Assembly (NCBI GenBank): GCA_027051905.1
Contig: JALUGO010000030.1
Span: forward strand, 186,001 to 250,000
DNA from: Desulfurobacteriaceae bacterium
GTDB lineage: Bacteria; Aquificota; Aquificia; Desulfurobacteriales; Desulfurobacteriaceae
Direction: 5' to 3'
Length of the DNA stretch: 64,000 nucleotides
The notes under the pieces are model-generated. The model saw nothing but the letters and a program-made list of their open reading frames with translations. It was not told where the DNA came from and did no database searches. Numbering within the stretch: the first letter of the stretch is position 1; every line of letters begins with the position of its first letter. Position numbers and translations under genes: made by a program. Positions 1 through 55,766 of the stretch are shown here, one piece after another.

Positions 1-443
1 AGGTTATAGCTCCGGGCAAGTGGCCGACCTTTAAAGACACAGACGCAAAGATAGCGGGGGCGAAGCAGGAAGTAGAGTTAAACTTTGACAGGTATTACAA
101 CGCCGCAAGGCAGAAAGCGAAAGAGTATGAAGAGCTTGCCTTAATGGTTAAAAAAGTCTTCGGTCTCAACCCTTACGTTCCCGAAGAGGACAGGATACAG
201 ACGGCGTTATACAGGCTCGGAGCTCCGGAGCTTCTTGAGGCGTATAGGGAGTGCGTGAGAGCGGCCGAGATTGACAGGAAAGGAGCAGTAACTGAAGAAT
301 ACTGCACTCAGCTCAAGTGGGACAGGGTAAAGCAGGCGATTGACAGGTTAGATAAAGAGATTGACCAGATACTTTCACGTTCGGGAATGAACGACGTTAT
401 GTTTTTGGGACTTAACGGAGTGGCCGAGTTATGGATAAGATAA
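1..443 (+). CDS. Unrecognised protein, 5' end cut by the window edge
   Basis: The reading frame is open from base 3 through the ATG at 144 to the TAA at 441-443. The gene therefore almost certainly starts left of the window, and 144 is an internal Met. The visible 146 residues are helical and charged, with a Trp-Pro near the start, paired Tyr, and a C-terminal stretch that may be coiled (IDRLDKEIDQIL). I recognise no family. Its end overlaps the next gene by 13 nt, so the two are probably co-transcribed. It could be part of a mobile or defence island with the PLD-ATPase gene downstream; that is inference from position only. Confidence 0.6.
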   Translation, partial: VIAPGKWPTFKDTDAKIAGAKQEVELNFDRYYNAARQKAKEYEELALMVKKVFGLNPYVPEEDRIQTALYRLGAPELLEAYRECVRAAEIDRKGAVTEEYCTQLKWDRVKQAIDRLDKEIDQILSRSGMNDVMFLGLNGVAELWIR

Positions 444-1114
444 ATCCTTTTGAAGATACTAAAGCCTTTGTTGAAATGGTAAAGTTGAGCAATATTGAGC
501 CGGATTTAAAACAGATAGCTGTTTTTTTCCCGGATGCTCTGCTTATCGGGGATGAAGATTACAGAGATTCTGAATTTGGAAAAGGACTTTTTTGTCTTAT
601 GCACACAGACCCGTACAGATTTTCAAGAATAGTAGAATGTCATGTGAACAACTATAACGTTTTAGGATACAGACTAATAAAAGAAAATCAGGCTCCTGAA
701 GGAAAACTTGTAGGGATGTTCATCCTTTCCATAGCTGTTAAAAATGCCGGTTTTGAGTTATTTAATGAAATGCCCCGCCCTGAATACTTTAAAGCAATTT
801 TAGATATGTTTAAACATATAAAACTTGATGAAATTGATAAAGCTTTAAAAAGCATAGAACCACCGCAGGGAGTAAAGGAAGAATTTAAAGAGCTCTTAAC
901 ACCATATTTTTACTGGCAGGAATATAAAAAGAGCATAAAAGAACTTAAGGAAGAATATGTTTGGGCCTTTCTTGCACATCTTAACTCAATATTCTCTGCA
1001 TTTTTCCTGATTTCTTATCGCCAATATGCTAAATCTTCACAAGGAAAAGAATCTAATGTTATCCAACTGCAGGGAAATGTAGGAAAAGTCACTTTGAAAT
1101 ACCCCGGTTCTTGA
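431..1114 (+). CDS. Hypothetical protein, 227 aa
   Basis: ATG at 431 overlaps the preceding stop by 13 nt. The protein is soluble for most of its length and acidic to neutral. A hydrophobic aromatic stretch near residues 180-197 (WAFLAHLNSIFSAFFLIS) could be a single membrane-associated helix. There are no nucleotide-binding or metal motifs that I can see. Codons are more AT-rich than in the neighbouring housekeeping genes, and the GGAGCTCC word common elsewhere is absent. I do not recognise the family. It sits between an unknown gene and a nuclease-ATPase fusion, so it may be accessory to it. Confidence 0.6.
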   Translation: MDKINPFEDTKAFVEMVKLSNIEPDLKQIAVFFPDALLIGDEDYRDSEFGKGLFCLMHTDPYRFSRIVECHVNNYNVLGYRLIKENQAPEGKLVGMFILSIAVKNAGFELFNEMPRPEYFKAILDMFKHIKLDEIDKALKSIEPPQGVKEEFKELLTPYFYWQEYKKSIKELKEEYVWAFLAHLNSIFSAFFLISYRQYAKSSQGKESNVIQLQGNVGKVTLKYPGS

Positions 1115-1213
1115 AAAGTCTTATAATCCTAGTTCTTTTTTAACTTTAGTACGTGAGAGAGATTTTGCAGGGGAATTTGATATGATTTAGACGAATAAGA
1201 TTGGGATTTAGCT

Positions 1214-3121
1214 GTGGACTTATTTGCTCAAAGCAAGTCAAAAAAGAATAAGAAATTAAGAGCTGTTAAGATTCTGGATTACACTGTAGATCAGGTAGAA
1301 CCTCTTAGCTTATTGGATGGGTTTAAAGAATTAAAAGCTGTAACTTTTTCTTCTTCCCTATCTATGCTTAGGAAACTGTATGAAATAGGATTTTCAAAAG
1401 TAAACCTTGTAATTTCTCTTTCAGAAGATTTTAAGGAAACTAAAGAGCTCAATTTAGTTAGGCTCTTGACTGAAGAGGGAGACGAAATCTCCAAGGTTGT
1501 ACCGAGGCTTGATTTTGAAGTTAAATATTTTCCTAAGAGTCATTCAAAGTTTTACATACTTCGGAAAAAAGATGGAACAAAGAGATTAATTCTTGGAAGT
1601 TTAAACTTTTCAATTCCAGCCTGGTCGGGAAAACAGCAGGAAGAAGTTTTGTATAGTGATGATCCTAATTTAGTTGAATTTTACGAAGAGGTGTTTGATC
1701 AAATATGGAATTCCTCAAAGGAGATTGTCGATTCAAAATCAGTTAATCGTGAACTACAAAAAAAGAATCTTACACTTAACATAGAAAACTTGAATCTAAC
1801 CCCTGAAAATTTAGAAATTATTAAAAAACTTTATAATCTAACTATGGGAATAACAATAAAAAATCTCATGACAAGTATAAATCCTAAGATTCTTAAAATT
1901 CAGGCAGAAGAAGAGAAAAAGAAGTTGAATAAGATTTACTCAAATATTTCTAAAATGACTTCCCTAAAAGAGAGCTTATTGATATCTCCTGCAGAAAGGG
2001 TATCAAAGGTTCTTGATGAAGATCAGGATGAAATCACAAAGTCGCTAACCTTTGAGAAAGGAAAATGGGTTTTATCTGGAATACTCACAATTACTGGAGA
2101 TAAAAAAGAACGGGCTTTAGATAACTTATTCTTCCTAAAGGAAATTCTTAATTTTGTTAGGGAACACGGGGGAACAGAGGAAACCGAGAAAAACATATTG
2201 GAGAGCATTATTTTCAGTTTTTCAGGAAGTTATCTATGGGTAGTAAGGCAAAAAGAAGAAAATTTACCCGAAAGTTTCCCTGTTTTTGGAATACTTGCTG
2301 GCACTAGTAAAGCAGGTAAGAGTTTAACACTTTCTATTATTTCTATGCTAACCCATAATGAGTTTGTAACTATTGAATACTCGAAAAAGTTTAATCTAAA
2401 AGGATGGGAGTGTAGTATAGGAAAATCGGAAGCAAATATTTTTGAATACTATTTTGATGGAAGACTTTCTTTTGCTAAAGGAGTTTTTCCTTTGCTTGTT
2501 AATGAGGTTAACGAAGGTCATTTGAAGGATAGAAAGCTGTACAATATTGTAAAAACTGTTTCAAACACTAGGATTCCCAAACAGCACGGAGTTGCTGTTA
2601 TGTCTATGAATGTCTCTCTTTTCCTGCCTCCTGAAATAGCAAGAAGAGTATTTTTCCTTGAATATAGCTTCGCTTTAAAGGAACATAAGAAACTGGAAGG
2701 AAAGTTAAGACCTCTTATGAAAAAACTTGATAACTCGCTTTTCTACTACTTTTTAGCTCAAACAAACCCCTATGAGGTAAATGTTTCGGCAGATGATCCT
2801 CTGAAGTACACCAGAGAATTCTTCAAAACACTGTCGGAAGAAAGAGAAATAGATCTTCCCATACCTCAAACATATATGGGAGATGTGGAATCAAAAAGCT
2901 ATTCAGAGTTAAAACACGTGTTTTCTTTAATAGAAGAGGTACCAACTGTTAAACATCCAAAAGAGGGAGTTGAGTGTTATCTACTGGAAAAAGAGAAATT
3001 TCGTTATCCTCCTCCTGTAGAAGTACTGGTTGAAGATAGGGGGAGTTATTACTATTTGCACAAAAAGAAGACCGATAAAATTTGTGGTAAAAGAAAATTC
3101 TGGGAAAAATTTTTAAGCTAA
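1214..3121 (+). CDS. Phospholipase D-like nuclease / P-loop ATPase fusion, candidate defence protein
   Basis: 635 aa from a GTG start (weak Shine-Dalgarno, so the start is uncertain). Residues about 40-170 form a PLD-like domain: His110-x-Lys112, Asp120, then GSLNFS at 128-133, as in HKD-type nucleases. Residues 180-260 are lysine/glutamate-rich and helical. The C-terminal half is a P-loop ATPase: Walker A GTSKAGKS at 363-370, a Walker-B-like FPLLVNE ending at Glu431, a sensor-like Asn466 and paired Arg477/478, an order seen in AAA+/SF3-type ATPases. There is one HKD motif per chain, so a dimer would be needed for catalysis. Codons are AT-rich and there is no GGAGCTCC. Nuclease plus ATPase suggests DNA restriction or anti-phage defence, but no named system is recognised. 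Confidence 0.7.
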   Translation: MDLFAQSKSKKNKKLRAVKILDYTVDQVEPLSLLDGFKELKAVTFSSSLSMLRKLYEIGFSKVNLVISLSEDFKETKELNLVRLLTEEGDEISKVVPRLDFEVKYFPKSHSKFYILRKKDGTKRLILGSLNFSIPAWSGKQQEEVLYSDDPNLVEFYEEVFDQIWNSSKEIVDSKSVNRELQKKNLTLNIENLNLTPENLEIIKKLYNLTMGITIKNLMTSINPKILKIQAEEEKKKLNKIYSNISKMTSLKESLLISPAERVSKVLDEDQDEITKSLTFEKGKWVLSGILTITGDKKERALDNLFFLKEILNFVREHGGTEETEKNILESIIFSFSGSYLWVVRQKEENLPESFPVFGILAGTSKAGKSLTLSIISMLTHNEFVTIEYSKKFNLKGWECSIGKSEANIFEYYFDGRLSFAKGVFPLLVNEVNEGHLKDRKLYNIVKTVSNTRIPKQHGVAVMSMNVSLFLPPEIARRVFFLEYSFALKEHKKLEGKLRPLMKKLDNSLFYYFLAQTNPYEVNVSADDPLKYTREFFKTLSEEREIDLPIPQTYMGDVESKSYSELKHVFSLIEEVPTVKHPKEGVECYLLEKEKFRYPPPVEVLVEDRGSYYYLHKKKTDKICGKRKFWEKFLS

Positions 3122-16522: not shown

Positions 16523-16924
16523 TTATGCCTTTATCTTGAAAAGTTTAATTTCCTTATCAGACTCTGGTATGGTGTTCTTGCAAGGCAAGGAAATGTAAAC
16601 TACGAGATAGCAAAGTTCACTCCCGTTGACCTGCAGTATCAGGTTGATGTCTGGTGTAAGTTCTACTCTGACGTCTCTTTTCTCCAGACTCAGCTGATTC
16701 ACTGGTTTTCCTACGGCGGGAAGATAAACTGCTCTGGTCTCCTCTTTCCTGTTTTCCTTGAAGACCTTTCTGACCTCTCCCAGCTTGAGTCTGATTCTGA
16801 TGATCGCCTTTTGAGGTTCTCTGCGACCCTGAGGATTGAGAGTTGGCTTTCCGCTGAAGAGAGGATTGAGAGGAAGTTTGAGATTTGGTACATTCCTCTG
16901 GAGCTTTATCCAAGTAATAGGTAA
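16523..16924 (+). pseudogene. Start-less fragment of a phage-structural-like gene
   Basis: An open frame of 133 codons runs from just after a TGA at 16520-16522 to a TAA at 16922-16924, with no ATG, GTG or TTG start in its first part. From about 16580 it reads as good protein: NVNYEIAKFTPVDLQYQV, then DVWCKFYSD, a Ser/Asp-rich middle, RIESWLSAEER and EIWYIPLELYPSNR. The PVDL-YQVD-W pattern recalls tail or neck proteins of tailed phages (recollection, not searched). The 5' half has been lost. Its 3' end abuts the antisense tail of the leftward membrane-protein fragment. Confidence 0.6.
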
Positions 16925-17135
16925 TACGCTTTATTCTGGATATTGGAACTTCTATTGTTTTATTTCCATCTTTAAAAAAAACTTTATTTTCCGAATTTAA
17001 TAAGATAAGGACATCTCTTGGAGGAGTATCTAATGAATAAATCCTTACACACTCATATCCCAGTCCTGAAATTCGTAAAGGAACCGGTAGAAGAAAAGGA
17101 ACAGAGTGTATAAAATATATACATAAAAAAACCAA
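16617..17135 (-). pseudogene. Displaced C-terminal domain of a membrane protein, running into phage remnant
   Basis: The first 80 or so codons look real (LRISGLGYECVRIYS, then VLILLNSENKVFF, then VPISRIKRITYYLD). The rest is low-complexity Ser/Gln/Arg, the exact antisense of the phage fragment at 16571-16924. It overlaps the end of the membrane protein at 17053-17901 by 83 nt in another frame. The simplest reading is one former protein, helices plus a soluble domain, broken by a one-base shift in the CCTTTTCTTCT stretch near 17090-17110, with its original stop lost at the junction near 16915. Confidence 0.5.
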
Positions 17136-17901
17136 TCACTACCAGTAGGGAAAGCACATATATATTAACGAGCTCGGATAACTTTAAATTTTTCATATTC
17201 ATCATTCCTTTAACAGTACTAATAGGGTTAATCAAAAGAACTAAAACAAGCATCGCAATAATTAGCGAAAATCCTTGGAGAAACGGTTCCTTAATGGAAG
17301 ATTTATTAAATTTGGGTGGAATTTTCTGAAGAAATTCAGAAATAGCCTGATCAATTACCATGTAACCAAGTACAAGACTTAATAGAAGTAGAATATAAAA
17401 GGCAATTAAAATCTCTAAATCTTTTTTTGCGACATTCGCATTATTATTATCTATTAAATACTGGAGGACATAATATATAAGCAATGTTGATAGTGAAAGA
17501 CCGAAAAAAAGAGTAAATAGTAGAGAATGATTAGTTAGAATAAATAACACAGCTATCGCAAGGAAGATATAAATTAGAACAGGAGTACTCAAAACTTTTA
17601 GTAGTCTGTTTTCCTTAATATTGATAAACTCTGTTGTTTCATTTTTTCTATTTCCCGTCATCAGCGTTTCCATGTAAGTTAAGAAAGAATAAAATACAAT
17701 TATGGGTAAATAAAAAGAAATTATTATAACTTCAGCAACAAGGTAGGTTATTATAAAACCAGTCTCTTCCCAGAATATAAAAGGAACTTTAAACTTCCAG
17801 GCATAAAATAAAAGCCAACAGAAACCAGCTAAAAGTATTAATATAACCCCATACCTATTAAACCCTTTAATCTTCTTTAAAAATTCCAAGATAAAACTCA
17901 T
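17053..17901 (-). CDS. Multi-pass membrane protein, unknown, probably frameshifted at its 3' end
   Basis: 282 aa, AT-rich codons, about seven hydrophobic segments starting at residue 17. No family recognised. The last 20 residues (Ser/Thr/Phe-rich) do not resemble a natural end, while a well-formed soluble domain continues in the next frame; see the adjacent pseudogene. Nothing marks it as a transporter. It lies in the unusual segment behind tRNA-Leu. Confidence 0.5.
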   Translation of the reverse strand: MSFILEFLKKIKGFNRYGVILILLAGFCWLLFYAWKFKVPFIFWEETGFIITYLVAEVIIISFYLPIIVFYSFLTYMETLMTGNRKNETTEFINIKENRLLKVLSTPVLIYIFLAIAVLFILTNHSLLFTLFFGLSLSTLLIYYVLQYLIDNNNANVAKKDLEILIAFYILLLLSLVLGYMVIDQAISEFLQKIPPKFNKSSIKEPFLQGFSLIIAMLVLVLLINPISTVKGMMNMKNLKLSELVNIYVLSLLVVIGFFMYIFYTLCSFSSTGSFTNFRTGI

Positions 17902-17966
17902 AACTACAGACCCTTTGCATTAAATTCCTTACTGATGTAATTTTCCCTATGATTCCTCTTTACTTA

Positions 17967-17986
17967 GCAAATGATTTGCGTTAAAA
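17967..17986. repeat. Operator-like repeat, copy 1
   Basis: GCAAATGATTTGCGTTAAAA contains the inverted repeat GCAAAT-G-ATTTGC. It matches the copy at 19133 at 16 of 20 bases and partly matches one at 19299. Possible binding site of the two-HTH regulator at 19349. Confidence 0.45.
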
Positions 17987-17995
17987 TATCCCAAA

Positions 17996-18033
17996 GGGAC
18001 TAAGGCTCTCAGTCGGTCTTAGTCCCCTTTTTT
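17996..18033 (+). terminator. Orphan rho-independent terminator
   Basis: GGGACTAAG (17996-18004) pairs with CTTAGTCCC (18018-18026) around a 13-nt loop, followed by a T run (18028-18033). This is the strongest terminator in the window, but no intact rightward gene lies just upstream, so its gene was probably deleted. Confidence 0.75.
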
Positions 18034-18053
18034 ATTTCTATCAGGGAGGAAGC

Positions 18054-18472
18054 ATGGCAGGAGAGAAATCGGTTAATTCCCAGAAAGGTAAAGAAAAACA
18101 AGGAGCTCAGCCGAGGAGGGGGACTTACCTGATAAGGAACACTTCAGGTCAGGACTTAACGAGAGGAGCTAACAGAGGAGGGTAAGTTCTTCCTTCTGGT
18201 ATTGCTCAGGGTTAACTTCTACTTCCCGGGATACGCCGTAGAGATAGACTGTCTATCGTGTGGAAAGGTCATCAAGAAGTTTATAGACCTTAGGGAGCTC
18301 CCCAAAAACTGTTTCAGACAACAGCGGAGAGGAGATAACTCTACTAAAAGAGATAAGCAACAGCCTGACTGCCATTCAGCAGCTAATAGCACAGGCGTAT
18401 AAACAGAAACTCCTTACCTCCTCAGGAGTATCCATTCCTGCTGTTGACCCTTTTGAACAGTGGAGGAAATAG
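18054..18472 (+). pseudogene. Small phage-type gene broken by two frameshifts
   Basis: ATG at 18054 has GGGAGGAAGC before it. Frame 1 gives MAGEKSVNSQKGKEKQG through GTYLIRNTSGQDLT and then soon stops (TAA 18183-18185). Another frame continues as REELTEEGKFFLL to about 18310, with a CLSCGK pair and KKFIDLRELPKN. A third frame carries NSGEEITLLKEISNS through VSIPAVDPFEQWRK to the TAG at 18470-18472. Together they make one plausible protein of about 135 residues. The intact ribosome site and three continuous pieces argue for recent decay. Phage origin is inferred. Confidence 0.6.
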
Positions 18473-51014: not shown

Positions 51015-51821
51015 ATGCAGAACCTCAGCGAAGTTGTCATCTCAGAGGCCATCATCTCCTCTTTCATGGAAAAACTGAAGAAAAACCTTGAATTAGATGT
51101 TGCCATTGTTGGAGGAGGTCCTTCAGGTCTTGTTGCAGGTTACTACCTTGCAAAGGAAGGTTTTAAAGTGGCCATCTTTGAGAGGAAGCTCTCAATAGGT
51201 GGTGGAATGTGGGCTGGAGCTATGTTCTTTAACGAAATTGTCGTTCAGGAGATGGGAAGAGAAGTTCTGGACGAGTTTGGCGTTAACTACAGGGAATATA
51301 AGCCGGGCTACTACCTTGCAGACGCCGTTGAATCCGTAACGACGATAGCCTCTAAAGCTGTAAAAGCTGGAGCAACAGTTTTTAACGGAGTAACTGCTGA
51401 AGACGTTGTTCTGAAACAGGTAAACGGCCAGTATAGGGTCTGCGGCCTTGTTATCAACTGGACGACAGTTGATATGAACCATCTGATGGTTGACCCTCTT
51501 GTGGTAACCTCTAAGTTCGTTGTTGACGCAACAGGCCACGACGCAACAGTCGTTTCAACACTTCAAAGGAAGGCCGGAATTAAGCTGAATACGGAAACCG
51601 GCTGCGTTGTTGGAGAGAAACCCCTGTGGGCTTCAGTTGGTGAGGAAGACACGGTCAAAAATTCAAAAGAAGTTTTCCCCGGTATCTTTGTAAGCGGAAT
51701 GGCTGCAAACGCAACCTGCGGTTCACACAGGATGGGACCGGTTTTTGGCGGTATGCTGATGTCTGGCAAAAAGGTTGCCAGAGAAATTGCTGAAAGGCTT
51801 AAATCCAATAAGGAGGAATAA
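51015..51821 (+). CDS. thi4: THI4-type thiazole synthase, non-Cys form
   Basis: 268 aa. Makes the ADP-thiazole precursor of thiamine from NAD, glycine and sulfide. NAD-binding VAIVGGGPSGLVAGYYLAK near 29-47, FERKLSIGGGMW, and GMAANATCGSHRMGP at the end. The residue before VDP (yeast sulfur-donor Cys205, His in methanogen enzymes, by my alignment) is Met158, so suicide Cys chemistry is impossible here; free sulfide is the likely donor. Stop and thiC start overlap by one base. Confidence 0.93.
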   Translation: MQNLSEVVISEAIISSFMEKLKKNLELDVAIVGGGPSGLVAGYYLAKEGFKVAIFERKLSIGGGMWAGAMFFNEIVVQEMGREVLDEFGVNYREYKPGYYLADAVESVTTIASKAVKAGATVFNGVTAEDVVLKQVNGQYRVCGLVINWTTVDMNHLMVDPLVVTSKFVVDATGHDATVVSTLQRKAGIKLNTETGCVVGEKPLWASVGEEDTVKNSKEVFPGIFVSGMAANATCGSHRMGPVFGGMLMSGKKVAREIAERLKSNKEE

Positions 51822-53122
51822 TGGCTACACTTGTTGAACTTGTTAAGAAGGGAATAGTTCCAAAAGAGGTTGAGTTCTGTGCAGAGTATGAGAAAAGGGA
51901 CGTTGACTATATAGTTAACGGCCTTATAGAAGGGACGATAGTTATCCCTGCAAACATTTACCATAGGGAGAGGGAGGACTTTACTCCCAGAGCCATCGGG
52001 AAAGGACTTAAGACAAAGGTTAACGTTAACATAGGAACCTCTGGCGATATTGAGGACATAGAGCTCGAACTTGAAAAGCTTAGAGTTGCTCTGAAGTATG
52101 GAACAGATGCCGTTATGGACCTTTCAACTGGAAAGTTCATAGATGAGACAAGAAGGGCAATTCTGAAAAACTCTCCGGTTATGGTTGGAACCGTTCCTAT
52201 CTACCAGGCTGCAAAGGAAGCTGCTGAAAGGTATGGATTTATCGGGAAGATGACGGTAGACGACCTCTTTAACGTAATAGAGAAACACTGCCAGGATGGC
52301 GTTGACTTCATAACCGTCCACTGCGGTGTAACTCTCTCTTCGCTTGAGAGGCTCAGGAACGAGGGAAGGATAATGAACATCGTCTCCCGGGGTGGAGCTC
52401 TCATGGCCGAGTGGATGGTCTACAATGATAGGGAAAACCCCTTATACGAGCACTACGATAGACTTTTAGAGATTGCAAAGAAGTATGATGTAACCCTTTC
52501 TTTAGGCGATGGAATGCGCCCCGGATGTATAGCCGACGCAACAGATAGGTGCCAGATTGAGGAGCTCATAACCCTTGGAGAGCTCGTTGACAGGGCAAGG
52601 GAGGCCGACGTTCAAGCTATGGTTGAAGGCCCCGGCCACGTTCCCCTTGACCAGGTTGAGGCAAACATCCTGCTTCAGAAAAGGCTCTGCCACGGAGCTC
52701 CCTTCTACGTTTTAGGTCCCATCGTTACAGATATAGCTCCCGGCTACGACCACATAACCGGAGCAATTGGAGGAGCAATAGCTGCAAAGGCAGGAGCCGA
52801 TTTCCTTTGCTATCTAACCCCAGCTGAACACCTGGCCTTGCCAGACGTCGAAGACGTTAAGCAGGGCGTAATCGCTGCAAGAATCGCTGGCCACGCTGCA
52901 GACATCGTTAAAGGTGTTCCCGGAGCTATTGATTGGGATATTGAAATGGCGAAGGCGAGAGAAGCATTAGACTGGGAGAGGCAGTTTGAACTTGCAATAG
53001 ACCCTGAAACTGCCCGCAGGTATAGGGAAGAGAGAGCTCCCCAGGAAGACGAAAAAACCTGCACAATGTGCGGAAAACTCTGTTCAATTAAAAGAGTAGA
53101 AGATTATCTGAATAAGAAATAA
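51821..53122 (+). CDS. thiC: Phosphomethylpyrimidine synthase
   Basis: 433 aa. Radical SAM enzyme that converts AIR to HMP-phosphate for thiamine. GTVPIYQ, HCGVTL, SLGDGMRPGC, EGPGHVPLDQ and the C-terminal cluster CTMCGKLC (C-x2-C-x3-C). It lacks the long N-terminal region of E. coli ThiC, as in the shorter anaerobe type. TAATG coupling to thi4; a terminator follows at 53129. Confidence 0.95.
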   Translation: MATLVELVKKGIVPKEVEFCAEYEKRDVDYIVNGLIEGTIVIPANIYHREREDFTPRAIGKGLKTKVNVNIGTSGDIEDIELELEKLRVALKYGTDAVMDLSTGKFIDETRRAILKNSPVMVGTVPIYQAAKEAAERYGFIGKMTVDDLFNVIEKHCQDGVDFITVHCGVTLSSLERLRNEGRIMNIVSRGGALMAEWMVYNDRENPLYEHYDRLLEIAKKYDVTLSLGDGMRPGCIADATDRCQIEELITLGELVDRAREADVQAMVEGPGHVPLDQVEANILLQKRLCHGAPFYVLGPIVTDIAPGYDHITGAIGGAIAAKAGADFLCYLTPAEHLALPDVEDVKQGVIAARIAGHAADIVKGVPGAIDWDIEMAKAREALDWERQFELAIDPETARRYREERAPQEDEKTCTMCGKLCSIKRVEDYLNKK

Positions 53123-53128
53123 ACTTTT

Positions 53129-53155
53129 GGCAGCGGGTATTCCCCGTTGCCTTTT
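53129..53155 (+). terminator. Terminator of thi4-thiC
   Basis: GGCAGCGGG (53129-53137) pairs with CCCGTTGCC (53143-53151), with one G-T pair, loop of 5, followed by TTTT. It overlaps the end of the convergent DUF4276 gene. Confidence 0.75.
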
Positions 53156-53809
53156 AAGAGTTTTTGAGTTTGTCTATCCATTCTCTAAAGTGAGGGCATT
53201 TTTCTATCATTTTTTCAATACCTAATATTTCTGCTATATCTATTCCATGAAGAGGTTTACTATACTTGTTTGGTTTTAAAATTGATTCTATCCTTTTTGA
53301 TGGTGCTGTTTCTGGGTTGTCGTTAATAAGCTCTGGATTTGGGAACTTACGAATTATATCTAAGAATTCTTCTTTTTTATTTGGAAAAACTTCTTCAAAA
53401 CCTATAATGTCTGAAAATAAGAGGGCTTCAAACTCGTGAATCTGGATATAGGGTATAAACTTGGAATCATTGATATCTTTGAACCAGCAATTCTCTAAGT
53501 GATGTACTTTTTCATATATGCCTCCGGAAGGCATATTTTCTTTTCCAGGAAAGTTTGAAGGGATTTTGTAAAAATCTATCAGAGTAGTAACTTTATAGCA
53601 GTCGCCATTTTTATTACTTTTTGTATATCTTTCTTTATATGATTATAGTTGACAAATCCACCTTTGTGTTTTTGATGAGGAGTTCTGCTTGTTTCTATGA
53701 TAATTGGTTTGAAATATATTTGAAACTCCAAGAAGTAGTTGGAAAGTATTTTTTTGATGAATTGTTCTTCTGTTTGCCCTTCAACAATTACATAAATTAT
53801 CCGGCACAA
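53154..53809 (-). pseudogene. DUF4276 (TOPRIM-like) protein split by a one-base frameshift
   Basis: The first frame (53579-53809) reads MCRIIYVIVEGQTEEQF through IKKDIQKVIK, then MATAIKLLL and stop. The other frame, open upstream of 53534, reads NGDCYKVTTLIDFYKIP, then NFPGKENMPSGG, then IQIHEFEALLFSD through to EWIDKLKNS. Adding one A to the ATAAAAATGG run near 53605 joins them into a protein of about 218 residues, the normal DUF4276 length. VEGQTE and HEFEALLFSD are the predicted TOPRIM metal-binding motifs. Starts 3 nt after the ATPase stop. Could be decay, sequencing error or programmed shifting. Confidence 0.8.
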
Positions 53810-53812
53810 CTT

Positions 53813-54922
53813 TTAGGGTCTCCCTCCTAAAATATTTTTTTCCCACAGTTCTCCTAAGGAGTATTCTTGAAGCCAGTCTTCAAGATCTTCTTTTTTAAGT
53901 CTTCTAAAAACAGATTGATTGTCTTCAACGTCAACTACTATTATGTCTTCAGGTTCAAAATGGCTTATTAGAGTTGCAGATTGTGTTGACATTATTATTT
54001 GAGTTTTAGGAGATATAGTCTTAACAATTTCAGAAAACAGCTTTATAGCTGCTGGATGAAGTCCCAGTTCTGGTTCATCTATGAGAATGGTTGAAGGTAA
54101 AAATTCTTCGGGTTGAAGAAGTAAAGTTAACAAACAAAGCATTCTTAGTGTTCCATCTGATAGATGAGATGCATTGAAATATTCATCTGAGTCTCGGTGT
54201 TTCCATTCTAATCTTATTCTTTCATTATCAATTCTGTCGGGTTCTAATACAAATTTTTCAAAGAAGGGAGCAACCTTTCTTAAATTTCTTTCTATTTGTT
54301 TAAAATTATTCTCATATCGTTTTTGGAGTAAATATAGAAATGCCGGTAGATTCGAAGCGTTTTCTCTGAAAAATCTATTGTCGTTTATATTACATGCTCT
54401 TCTCATCGGTGATTCATTGCTAGTATCGTGAAAATGATATACTTTCCACGTTTTCATGGAGTTAAATACGTAATACGATTTACTGGGTCCACCTACCTTT
54501 CCTGTTTCTTTAGCAGCTTCCGGAAGTTTACTTTCATACTCGTTTTTTCCTATATCATCATAATCCCAATAACCTTGGCTTGTATAGAAACCTACTCTTT
54601 CATATTCAAAGAATAAGTTATCTTGATTGTCGGGTATTAGTCTGAATTCATATACGTTTGGACTGAAGAAAACTTTACTCTCGATGTATTCAGAATATTT
54701 TCTCCCGAAGTAAAGCAGATTGTTGGCTCCTCCTTCTTTTCTTACGTGCTTTTGGAACTCCTGTTCTACAAAAGCATTTAACATCCTAAAAAATGATATG
54801 AAATTAGACTTACCAACTCCGTTGGCACCAATAAGGATATTGATATTTCTAAGTTCTATTTCAGCTTCTCTGATTGATTTAAAGTTTTTGATTACTAATT
54901 TTTCAACCTTTCTCTTTTCCAT
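53813..54922 (-). CDS. AAA ATPase of the OLD/RecF-like type, defence-module partner
   Basis: 369 aa. Walker A GANGVGKS (32-39) after KNFKSIREAEIEL; ABC-like signature HLSDGTLRMLCLL near 255-267, Walker B TILIDEPELGLHP and D/H-loop MSTQSATLISHF. No coiled-coil and no TOPRIM domain of its own; the TOPRIM-like function would come from the adjacent DUF4276 gene. AT-rich, with no GGAGCTCC. This resembles ATPase plus TOPRIM anti-phage pairs (PARIS AriA/AriB, OLD). Function inferred. Confidence 0.82.
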   Translation of the reverse strand: MEKRKVEKLVIKNFKSIREAEIELRNINILIGANGVGKSNFISFFRMLNAFVEQEFQKHVRKEGGANNLLYFGRKYSEYIESKVFFSPNVYEFRLIPDNQDNLFFEYERVGFYTSQGYWDYDDIGKNEYESKLPEAAKETGKVGGPSKSYYVFNSMKTWKVYHFHDTSNESPMRRACNINDNRFFRENASNLPAFLYLLQKRYENNFKQIERNLRKVAPFFEKFVLEPDRIDNERIRLEWKHRDSDEYFNASHLSDGTLRMLCLLTLLLQPEEFLPSTILIDEPELGLHPAAIKLFSEIVKTISPKTQIIMSTQSATLISHFEPEDIIVVDVEDNQSVFRRLKKEDLEDWLQEYSLGELWEKNILGGRP

Positions 54923-55010: not shown

Positions 55011-55766
55011 ATGCTTGCTAAAAGGATTATTCCCTGTTTAGATGTAAAAGAAGGAAGGGTTGTTAAGGGAGTTAACTTCGTTAACCTAATAGATGCAGGA
55101 GACCCTGTTGAGAACGCTAAAGTTTACGACGAGCAGGGAGCAGATGAGCTTGTTTTCTTAGACATTACGGCTAGCTATGAGAAAAGGGGAATAATGATTG
55201 ACGTTGTTAAGAGAACTGCAGAAGAGGTCTTCATGCCTTTAACTGTTGGTGGAGGAGTGAGAACCGTTGAGGATATAAGGAACCTGTTAAATGCCGGAGC
55301 TGATAAGGTTTCAATAAACACCGCTGCAGTTAAGAACCCGGAACTCATAACTGAGGGAGCAAAGCTCTTTGGTTCTCAGTGTATCGTTGTTGCAATTGAC
55401 GCAAAGAGAAAGGGAGAGAGCTGGGAAGTTTACATCCACGGCGGAAGAACGCCTACCGGTATAGACGCAGTTGAGTGGGCAAAGGAGGTTGTTGACAGGG
55501 GAGCTGGTGAAATCCTCCTCACTTCTATGGATAGAGATGGAACAAAAGCAGGTTACGACATAGAGCTTACAAGGGCTATCTCTGAGGCCGTTTCCGTTCC
55601 TGTTATTGCTTCAGGTGGAGCAGGAAAGCCTGAACACTTCTACGAGGGGTTAACAGAGGGTAAGGCCGATGCCGTTCTTGCCGCCTCTGTTTTCCACTTC
55701 AGGGAGATTTCAATTCCAGAACTTAAAAAATATCTAAAAGAAAGGGGAGTATGGGTGAGGATTTAG
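55011..55766 (+). CDS. hisF: Imidazole glycerol phosphate synthase, cyclase subunit
   Basis: 251 aa TIM barrel. [18 protein letters not shown] at the start with catalytic Asp11, [23 protein letters not shown] with the second catalytic Asp, and [11 protein letters not shown] phosphate site. Pairs with HisH, not in this window. The end overlaps the convergent arsC by 4 nt. Confidence 0.96.

What the first reader, a model, noticed from the sequence alone, without database searches (positions are those of the whole stretch)
53154..54922. Two-gene ATPase + DUF4276 module, likely anti-phage, with its effector split by one base
An OLD/RecF-like AAA ATPase lies 3 nt from a DUF4276 gene carrying VEGQTE and HEFEALLFSD, predicted TOPRIM metal sites. 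Known systems pair such ATPases with TOPRIM nucleases (PARIS AriA/AriB; OLD as one chain). I know of no named DUF4276 version. The effector is broken at an A run (ATAAAAATGG near 53605); restoring one A joins the frames. A toxic nuclease inactivated next to an intact sensor ATPase is what selection against self-toxicity would leave. Programmed slippage is the more exciting alternative.
Basis: partly seen in the sequence, partly recalled or inferred. Interest (0 to 1): 0.75.

Follow-up and report, generated by a model that had tools for sequence, protein, structure and literature searches.

The report
Broken two-gene candidate phage-defence module
A heat-loving bacterium carries a catalogued candidate anti-phage gene pair (HEC-01: an ATPase plus a predicted nuclease) whose nuclease gene has recently been broken, and a sister species broke the same gene at a different place, as if the nuclease were costly to keep.

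Summary
On the minus strand, an intact 369-aa OLD/AriA-like ABC ATPase (53813-54922) lies 3 nt from a DUF4276 gene (53154-53809) split into two frames at an A run (53608-53612). The claim that no named DUF4276 version exists is wrong. Both genes match PADLOC's candidate system HEC-01 (HEC-01A E=3e-146; HEC-01B matches both pieces). The predicted fold of an intact relative (pLDDT 91) is closest to OLD-nuclease TOPRIM domains. It keeps ExxxE, one Asp, HExE and a Lys, but not a full DxD.

The break is probably real decay. The sister species Thermovibrio sp. S141_83 has the module in the same thiC-hisF slot with an intact ATPase. Its DUF4276 is in frame at the window's break and broken downstream at another run. 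Of 61 window ORFs with a match there, 59 are intact, and only this gene is broken in both. Two different break sites and no downstream RNA structure argue against programmed frameshifting.

Across 741 genomes of two other clades, 49 pairs are intact. Counting the Thermovibrio pair, eight loci have a broken effector beside an intact ATPase and one the reverse (length-weighted P about 0.002, post hoc). This supports a costly effector. Nuclease activity, phage defence and toxicity remain untested.

The parts
53813..54922 (-). HEC-01A: AAA_21/AAA_15 ABC-type ATPase, 369 aa, intact
   Evidence: PADLOC HEC-01A E=3.5e-146; Pfam AAA_21 E=3.6e-30; AF2 model pLDDT 91 resembling PtuA/OLD/Rad50/SMC heads; dN/dS against sister 0.035
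53579..53809 (-). HEC-01B (DUF4276) 5' piece, 76 aa, TTG start, carries VEGQTEE; runs out of frame after about residue 66 and stops
   Evidence: PF14103 47 bits, positions 1-51; HEC-01B E=3.5e-21
53154..53615 (-). HEC-01B (DUF4276) 3' piece in another frame, carries the TTxxDxY, HEFEALLFSD and PSKR motifs
   Evidence: PF14103 134 bits, positions 56-191; HEC-01B E=1.7e-55
53608..53612 (-). Mononucleotide run (A on the minus strand) at which the reading frame is lost
   Evidence: the sister species is in frame here
53385..53389 (-). Run that is in frame in the window but is the site of the independent frame loss in the sister species G003
51821..53122 (+). thiC, left flank of the variable slot
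   Evidence: translation; orthologous in 6 of 6 genomes of the genus
55011..55766 (+). hisF, right flank of the variable slot
   Evidence: translation; orthologous in 6 of 6 genomes of the genus

Best explanation
This is a degenerate copy of the two-gene candidate defence system HEC-01. In intact copies, the ABC ATPase (HEC-01A) most likely senses infection and holds or licenses a TOPRIM-fold, metal-dependent nuclease (HEC-01B, DUF4276), which attacks nucleic acid when released, in the manner of PARIS AriA/AriB or a split OLD protein. In this Thermovibrio lineage the module sits in a variable slot between thiC and hisF. The effector gene has been inactivated by a one-nucleotide length change in a homopolymer, and a sister species inactivated it independently at another homopolymer, while the ATPase remains intact. 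The most likely driver is a fitness cost of the effector (leaky activity or autoimmunity) exceeding its benefit. Shown: gene identities, frame breaks, independence of the breaks, conserved pairing elsewhere, fold similarity. Inferred: nuclease activity, sensing and release mechanism, anti-phage role, cost as the selective force.
For: Family: both proteins match HEC-01; all 11 intact relatives match HEC-01B. Pairing: ATPase directly upstream of DUF4276 in all 13 loci from several phyla, in 33 of 36 core ATPase loci of one order (the other three are two effector breaks and one contig end), and in 16 intact pairs in another class. Fold: AF2 pLDDT 91, best PDB matches are the TOPRIM domains of Bp and Xcc OLD (6nk8_A, 6njv, 6njx; prob 0.91-0.99; TMq 0.38-0.50; E about 0.006-0.01), best viral match RloB-like. 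Invariant residues (E10, E14, D79, H125, E126, E128, K172, K183) parallel BpOLD E400/E404, D455, T506/E508 and K562 (PMC6755086). Decay: the sister species is in frame at the window's break and broken at another run; 59 of 61 window ORFs with a match are single-frame and only DUF4276 is broken in both genomes. Effector-biased loss: window, G003, G202, G203, G254:C55, G187:C130, G704 and G541 have effector broken and ATPase intact; only G185:C1 (672-674 kb) has the reverse (binomial P 0.002 length-weighted, 0.02 at even odds). dN/dS: DUF4276 0.11 against ATPase 0.035 and neighbours 0.013-0.024.
Against: Foldseek E-values are marginal and no PDB sequence relative exists. The second Asp of the TOPRIM DxD is not conserved. 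HEC-01 is a candidate system; I found no published assay of it in the library. The asymmetry count is small, post hoc and uses draft assemblies. DUF4276 is rich in A/T runs (18 runs of 5 or more per kb against 10 in the ATPase), so mutation bias explains part of where breaks fall. No raw reads were available.
Confidence: 0.68

Rival explanations
1. Neutral decay: the module became useless (no matching phage) and drifts. The effector broke first because it is rich in homopolymers, not because it is toxic.
For: DUF4276 has nearly twice the homopolymer density of the ATPase. Both Thermovibrio breaks are at 5-6 nt runs. The slot's other defence cargo (PDC-M56 in G004) is also broken, there in the ATPase just after Walker A.
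Against: The ATPase carries about as many runs in absolute number (11 against 12) and stays intact with dN/dS 0.035. The effector bias recurs in unrelated clades, sometimes by deletion rather than run slippage (G203, G541, G187:C130).
Confidence: 0.2
2. Sequencing or assembly error at homopolymers in one or both draft assemblies; the gene is intact in the cell.
For: G000 is a fragmented draft of about 84% completeness and G003 is a metagenome-assembled genome. Both breaks are single-nucleotide length changes in runs.
Against: No other gene among 61 compared shows such a break in both genomes, although the window holds 461 runs of 5 or more and DUF4276 only 12, so two errors landing in the same gene is about a 3% coincidence. 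The runs are short (5-6 nt).
Confidence: 0.07
3. Programmed -1 frameshifting or transcriptional slippage makes the full-length effector from two frames.
For: The break lies in an A-rich run, and the downstream frame stays conserved (dN/dS about 0.08-0.12).
Against: The sister reads through this site in frame and is broken at a different run. There is no stimulatory structure (z 0.14 and 0.51). Forty-nine intact pairs elsewhere need no shift. The run of five A is short for polymerase slippage (general knowledge).
Confidence: 0.04

Closest known systems
HEC-01 (Hma-embedded candidate 1, PADLOC-DB 2.0)
   Same: Both genes match its HMMs over their length, same gene order and near-zero spacing.
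   Different: In the window the HEC-01B gene is frame-broken, so no full-length effector is encoded.
PARIS (AriA ATPase + AriB TOPRIM tRNase)
   Same: Two adjacent genes, ABC ATPase sensor plus small TOPRIM-type effector; the ATPase also matches AriA models (E=9e-30). Mechanism described in PMC12409363.
   Different: The effector is DUF4276, with no AriB match; the ATPase fits HEC-01A by more than 110 orders of magnitude better.
OLD nucleases / Gabija GajA
   Same: ATPase resembles OLD and PtuA ATPases; DUF4276 fold resembles the OLD TOPRIM domain with ExxxE, Asp, xE and Lys positions.
   Different: Split into two genes, no UvrD-type helicase next to it, and the DxD is only partly kept.
RloB / AbiLii-type partner proteins
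   Same: Best viral fold match is an RloB-like protein (prob 0.99, TM 0.47); AbiL also pairs an ATPase with a small partner.
   Different: No RloB sequence-family match.

Membership tests
HEC-01 | ATPase matching HEC-01A | tested here: met
   E=3.5e-146 over residues 1-369
HEC-01 | Adjacent DUF4276 gene matching HEC-01B | tested here: met
   Both pieces match HEC-01B, E=3.5e-21 and 1.7e-55
HEC-01 | Gene order ATPase then effector, directly adjacent | tested here: met
   3-nt gap; same order in 13 of 13 loci
HEC-01 | Intact effector reading frame (functional system) | tested here: not met
   Frame lost at 53608-53612
HEC-01 | Anti-phage activity | not testable with these tools
   Candidate system; no assay found in the library
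PARIS | AriB (DUF4435) effector | tested here: not met
   Effector pieces match only DUF4276/HEC-01B, no AriB
PARIS | AriA ATPase | tested here: inconclusive
   Matches AriA at E=9e-30 but HEC-01A far better
OLD nuclease | ATPase and TOPRIM in one chain | tested here: not met
   Two genes
TOPRIM fold | TOPRIM-like fold | tested here: met
   AF2 pLDDT 91; top three PDB matches are OLD TOPRIM domains, prob 0.91-0.99, TMq 0.38-0.50, E about 0.006-0.01; moderate support only
TOPRIM fold | Catalytic Glu plus DxD | tested here: inconclusive
   E10/E14 and D79 invariant, second Asp absent; HExE and Lys invariant
Programmed frameshift gene | Conserved slip site and stimulatory structure | tested here: not met
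   Site not shared with sister; fold z-scores 0.14 and 0.51

The most novel reading that the evidence does not exclude
HEC-01 undergoes repeated, effector-specific loss across phyla while its ATPase stays under purifying selection. This would mean either that the TOPRIM effector is unusually autoimmune or that the orphaned ATPase keeps a useful function of its own.
Probability: 0.25. Interest if true: 0.55.

Novelty: new member of a known kind. Interest (0 to 1): 0.36.

Why it matters
HEC-01 is a widespread but, as far as I could find, untested candidate defence system. Parallel breakage of its predicted nuclease beside an intact ATPase in sister species, with the same bias in other clades, gives a testable prediction: the DUF4276 effector is costly or toxic and the ATPase restrains it. 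It also marks thiC-hisF as a small cargo slot in this genus.

Tried and rejected
Programmed frameshift: rejected as above. PARIS or OLD membership: rejected by effector family and gene architecture. Phage or viral origin: no DUF4276 relative in the phage collection or viral contigs; twelve plasmids carry one, all in one piece. PDB sequence relatives of DUF4276: none credible. A full literature trail for DUF4276 or HEC-01 is missing from the open library. Excluded from the 8:1 count: contig-cut loci (G263:C179, G578, G190:C48, G427, G263:C270), loci with both genes damaged (G514:C238, L019), and core ATPases with no DUF4276 remnant (G210, G247, G319, G254:C69 and C85, G311).

Full report
What is there. 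On the minus strand between thiC (51821-53122) and hisF (55011-55766), both on the plus strand, lie an intact 369-aa ATPase (54922..53813) and, 3 nt further, a DUF4276 gene split into two frames. The first frame (53809..53579) holds VEGQTEE and ends in two stop codons. The second (53615..53154) holds TTLIDFY, HEFEALLFSD and PSKR. Pfam DUF4276 covers positions 1-51 with the first piece and 56-191 with the second. The genome has no other copy.

Family. PADLOC-DB has one: HEC-01, in which the ATPase is HEC-01A (E=3.5e-146) and DUF4276 is HEC-01B (both pieces match). HEC stands for Hma-embedded candidate, a set found by 'guilt by embedding'; some members such as HEC-06 were shown to be antiviral (PMC12988326). 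I found no assay of HEC-01 itself in the open library.

Fold and active site. No solved structure is related to DUF4276 by sequence. An alignment of 11 intact relatives from several phyla gave a confident model (pLDDT 91). Its best PDB matches are the C-terminal TOPRIM regions of class 2 OLD nucleases (probability 0.91-0.99, TM normalised by query 0.38-0.50, E about 0.006-0.01), and its best viral match is an RloB-like protein. The invariant residues E10-x3-E14, D79, H125-E126-x-E128, K172 and K183 resemble the BpOLD set E400/E404, D455, T506/E508 and K562 (PMC6755086); the second Asp of DxD is missing. This residue mapping is my inference from order and spacing, not from a superposition. The ATPase model resembles PtuA, OLD, Rad50 and SMC heads.

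Conserved pairing. In all 13 loci from genome contigs the ATPase lies directly upstream of DUF4276. In one order, 33 of 36 core ATPases sit next to an intact DUF4276. In the class of G136, 16 pairs are intact. The window's phylum is poor in DUF4276: only the window genome and G003 exceed the family cut-off among 136 genomes, and both copies are broken.

Is the break real? The sister genome G003 (Thermovibrio sp. S141_83, WFYG01000008) carries the module in the same slot. Its ATPase is 98% identical and intact. Its DUF4276 is in frame across the window's break and loses frame downstream at another run (window equivalent 53385-53389). Comparing the whole window with that 237-kb contig, 59 of 61 window ORFs with a match are covered in a single frame; the exceptions are DUF4276 and one ORF in a divergent stretch near 17 kb. 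DUF4276 holds 12 of the window's 461 homopolymer runs of five or more, so two independent assembly errors in the same gene would be a coincidence of about 3%. Raw reads would settle it.

Programmed frameshifting. A conserved recoding site should be shared; it is not, and the sister is broken elsewhere. RNA folding downstream is no stronger than in shuffled sequence (z 0.14 and 0.51). I consider this unlikely.

Selection. Between the two species dN/dS is 0.035 for the ATPase, 0.11 for DUF4276 and 0.013-0.024 for four neighbours. The effector was therefore under purifying selection for most of the divergence, and the breaks are recent. Synonymous divergence is lower in the module (0.30-0.35) than in the neighbours (0.44-0.94), so transfer between the lineages after they split, before the breaks, cannot be excluded.

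Effector bias. In surveys of 741 genomes (348 and 393) I looked for loci with exactly one broken partner. Effector broken and ATPase intact: G202 (internal deletion), G203 (N-terminal deletion; its ATPase is close to that of G202 but the lesion differs), G254:C55 (frame loss), G187:C130 (only about 40 residues left), G704 (frame loss), G541 (internal deletion), plus the two Thermovibrio genomes. ATPase broken and effector intact: G185:C1 near 672-674 kb only. Eight to one has P=0.002 if breaks fell by gene length and 0.02 at even odds. The rule was set after seeing the first cases and the assemblies are drafts, so this is suggestive, not established.

The slot. In the same genus the thiC-hisF gap holds different cargo: HEC-01 in the window genome and G003; PADLOC candidate PDC-M56 in G004, whose ATPase is frame-broken just after Walker A; a GGDEF-EAL gene in G002 and G005 (read from sequence motifs). 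In G001 the two flanks lie on separate contigs. All three candidate defence modules seen in this slot are damaged.

Mechanism proposed. By analogy with PARIS, where AriA sequesters the TOPRIM tRNase AriB and releases it on a phage trigger (PMC12409363), HEC-01A would gate HEC-01B. Substrate (DNA or RNA) and trigger are unknown. In the window this output is lost; the remaining ATPase is either a relic or retains another role.

Verdict. A real, correctly read observation of an already catalogued candidate system, with good evidence for recent parallel inactivation of the effector. It is a new member of a known kind; the effector-biased decay is the part worth following.

Noticed in passing
L031:2472-4030 (sister genome G004, thiC-hisF slot): A different candidate defence pair, PADLOC PDC-M56A/B, occupies the same slot; its ATPase loses frame just after Walker A.
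   Followed up: partly
window 431-3121: Two plus-strand genes absent from the sister contig: a 227-aa ORF and a 635-aa protein with an NgoFVII/PLD-like nuclease domain (E about 1e-6) and a P-loop-like GTSKAGKS motif; no PADLOC match. Possibly an undescribed mobile or defence gene.
   Followed up: partly
window 16617-18470: Junction of a variable island: the sister contig has about 18 kb of extra or divergent sequence here (121.9-139.4 kb) and window ORFs 17053-17901 and 16617-17135 match it poorly.
   Followed up: no
L013 and L019 (Marithrix genomes G137, G143): Many DUF4276 copies (8 and 12 matches) including several fragments, suggesting expansion and decay of this family in these giant sulfur bacteria.
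   Followed up: no
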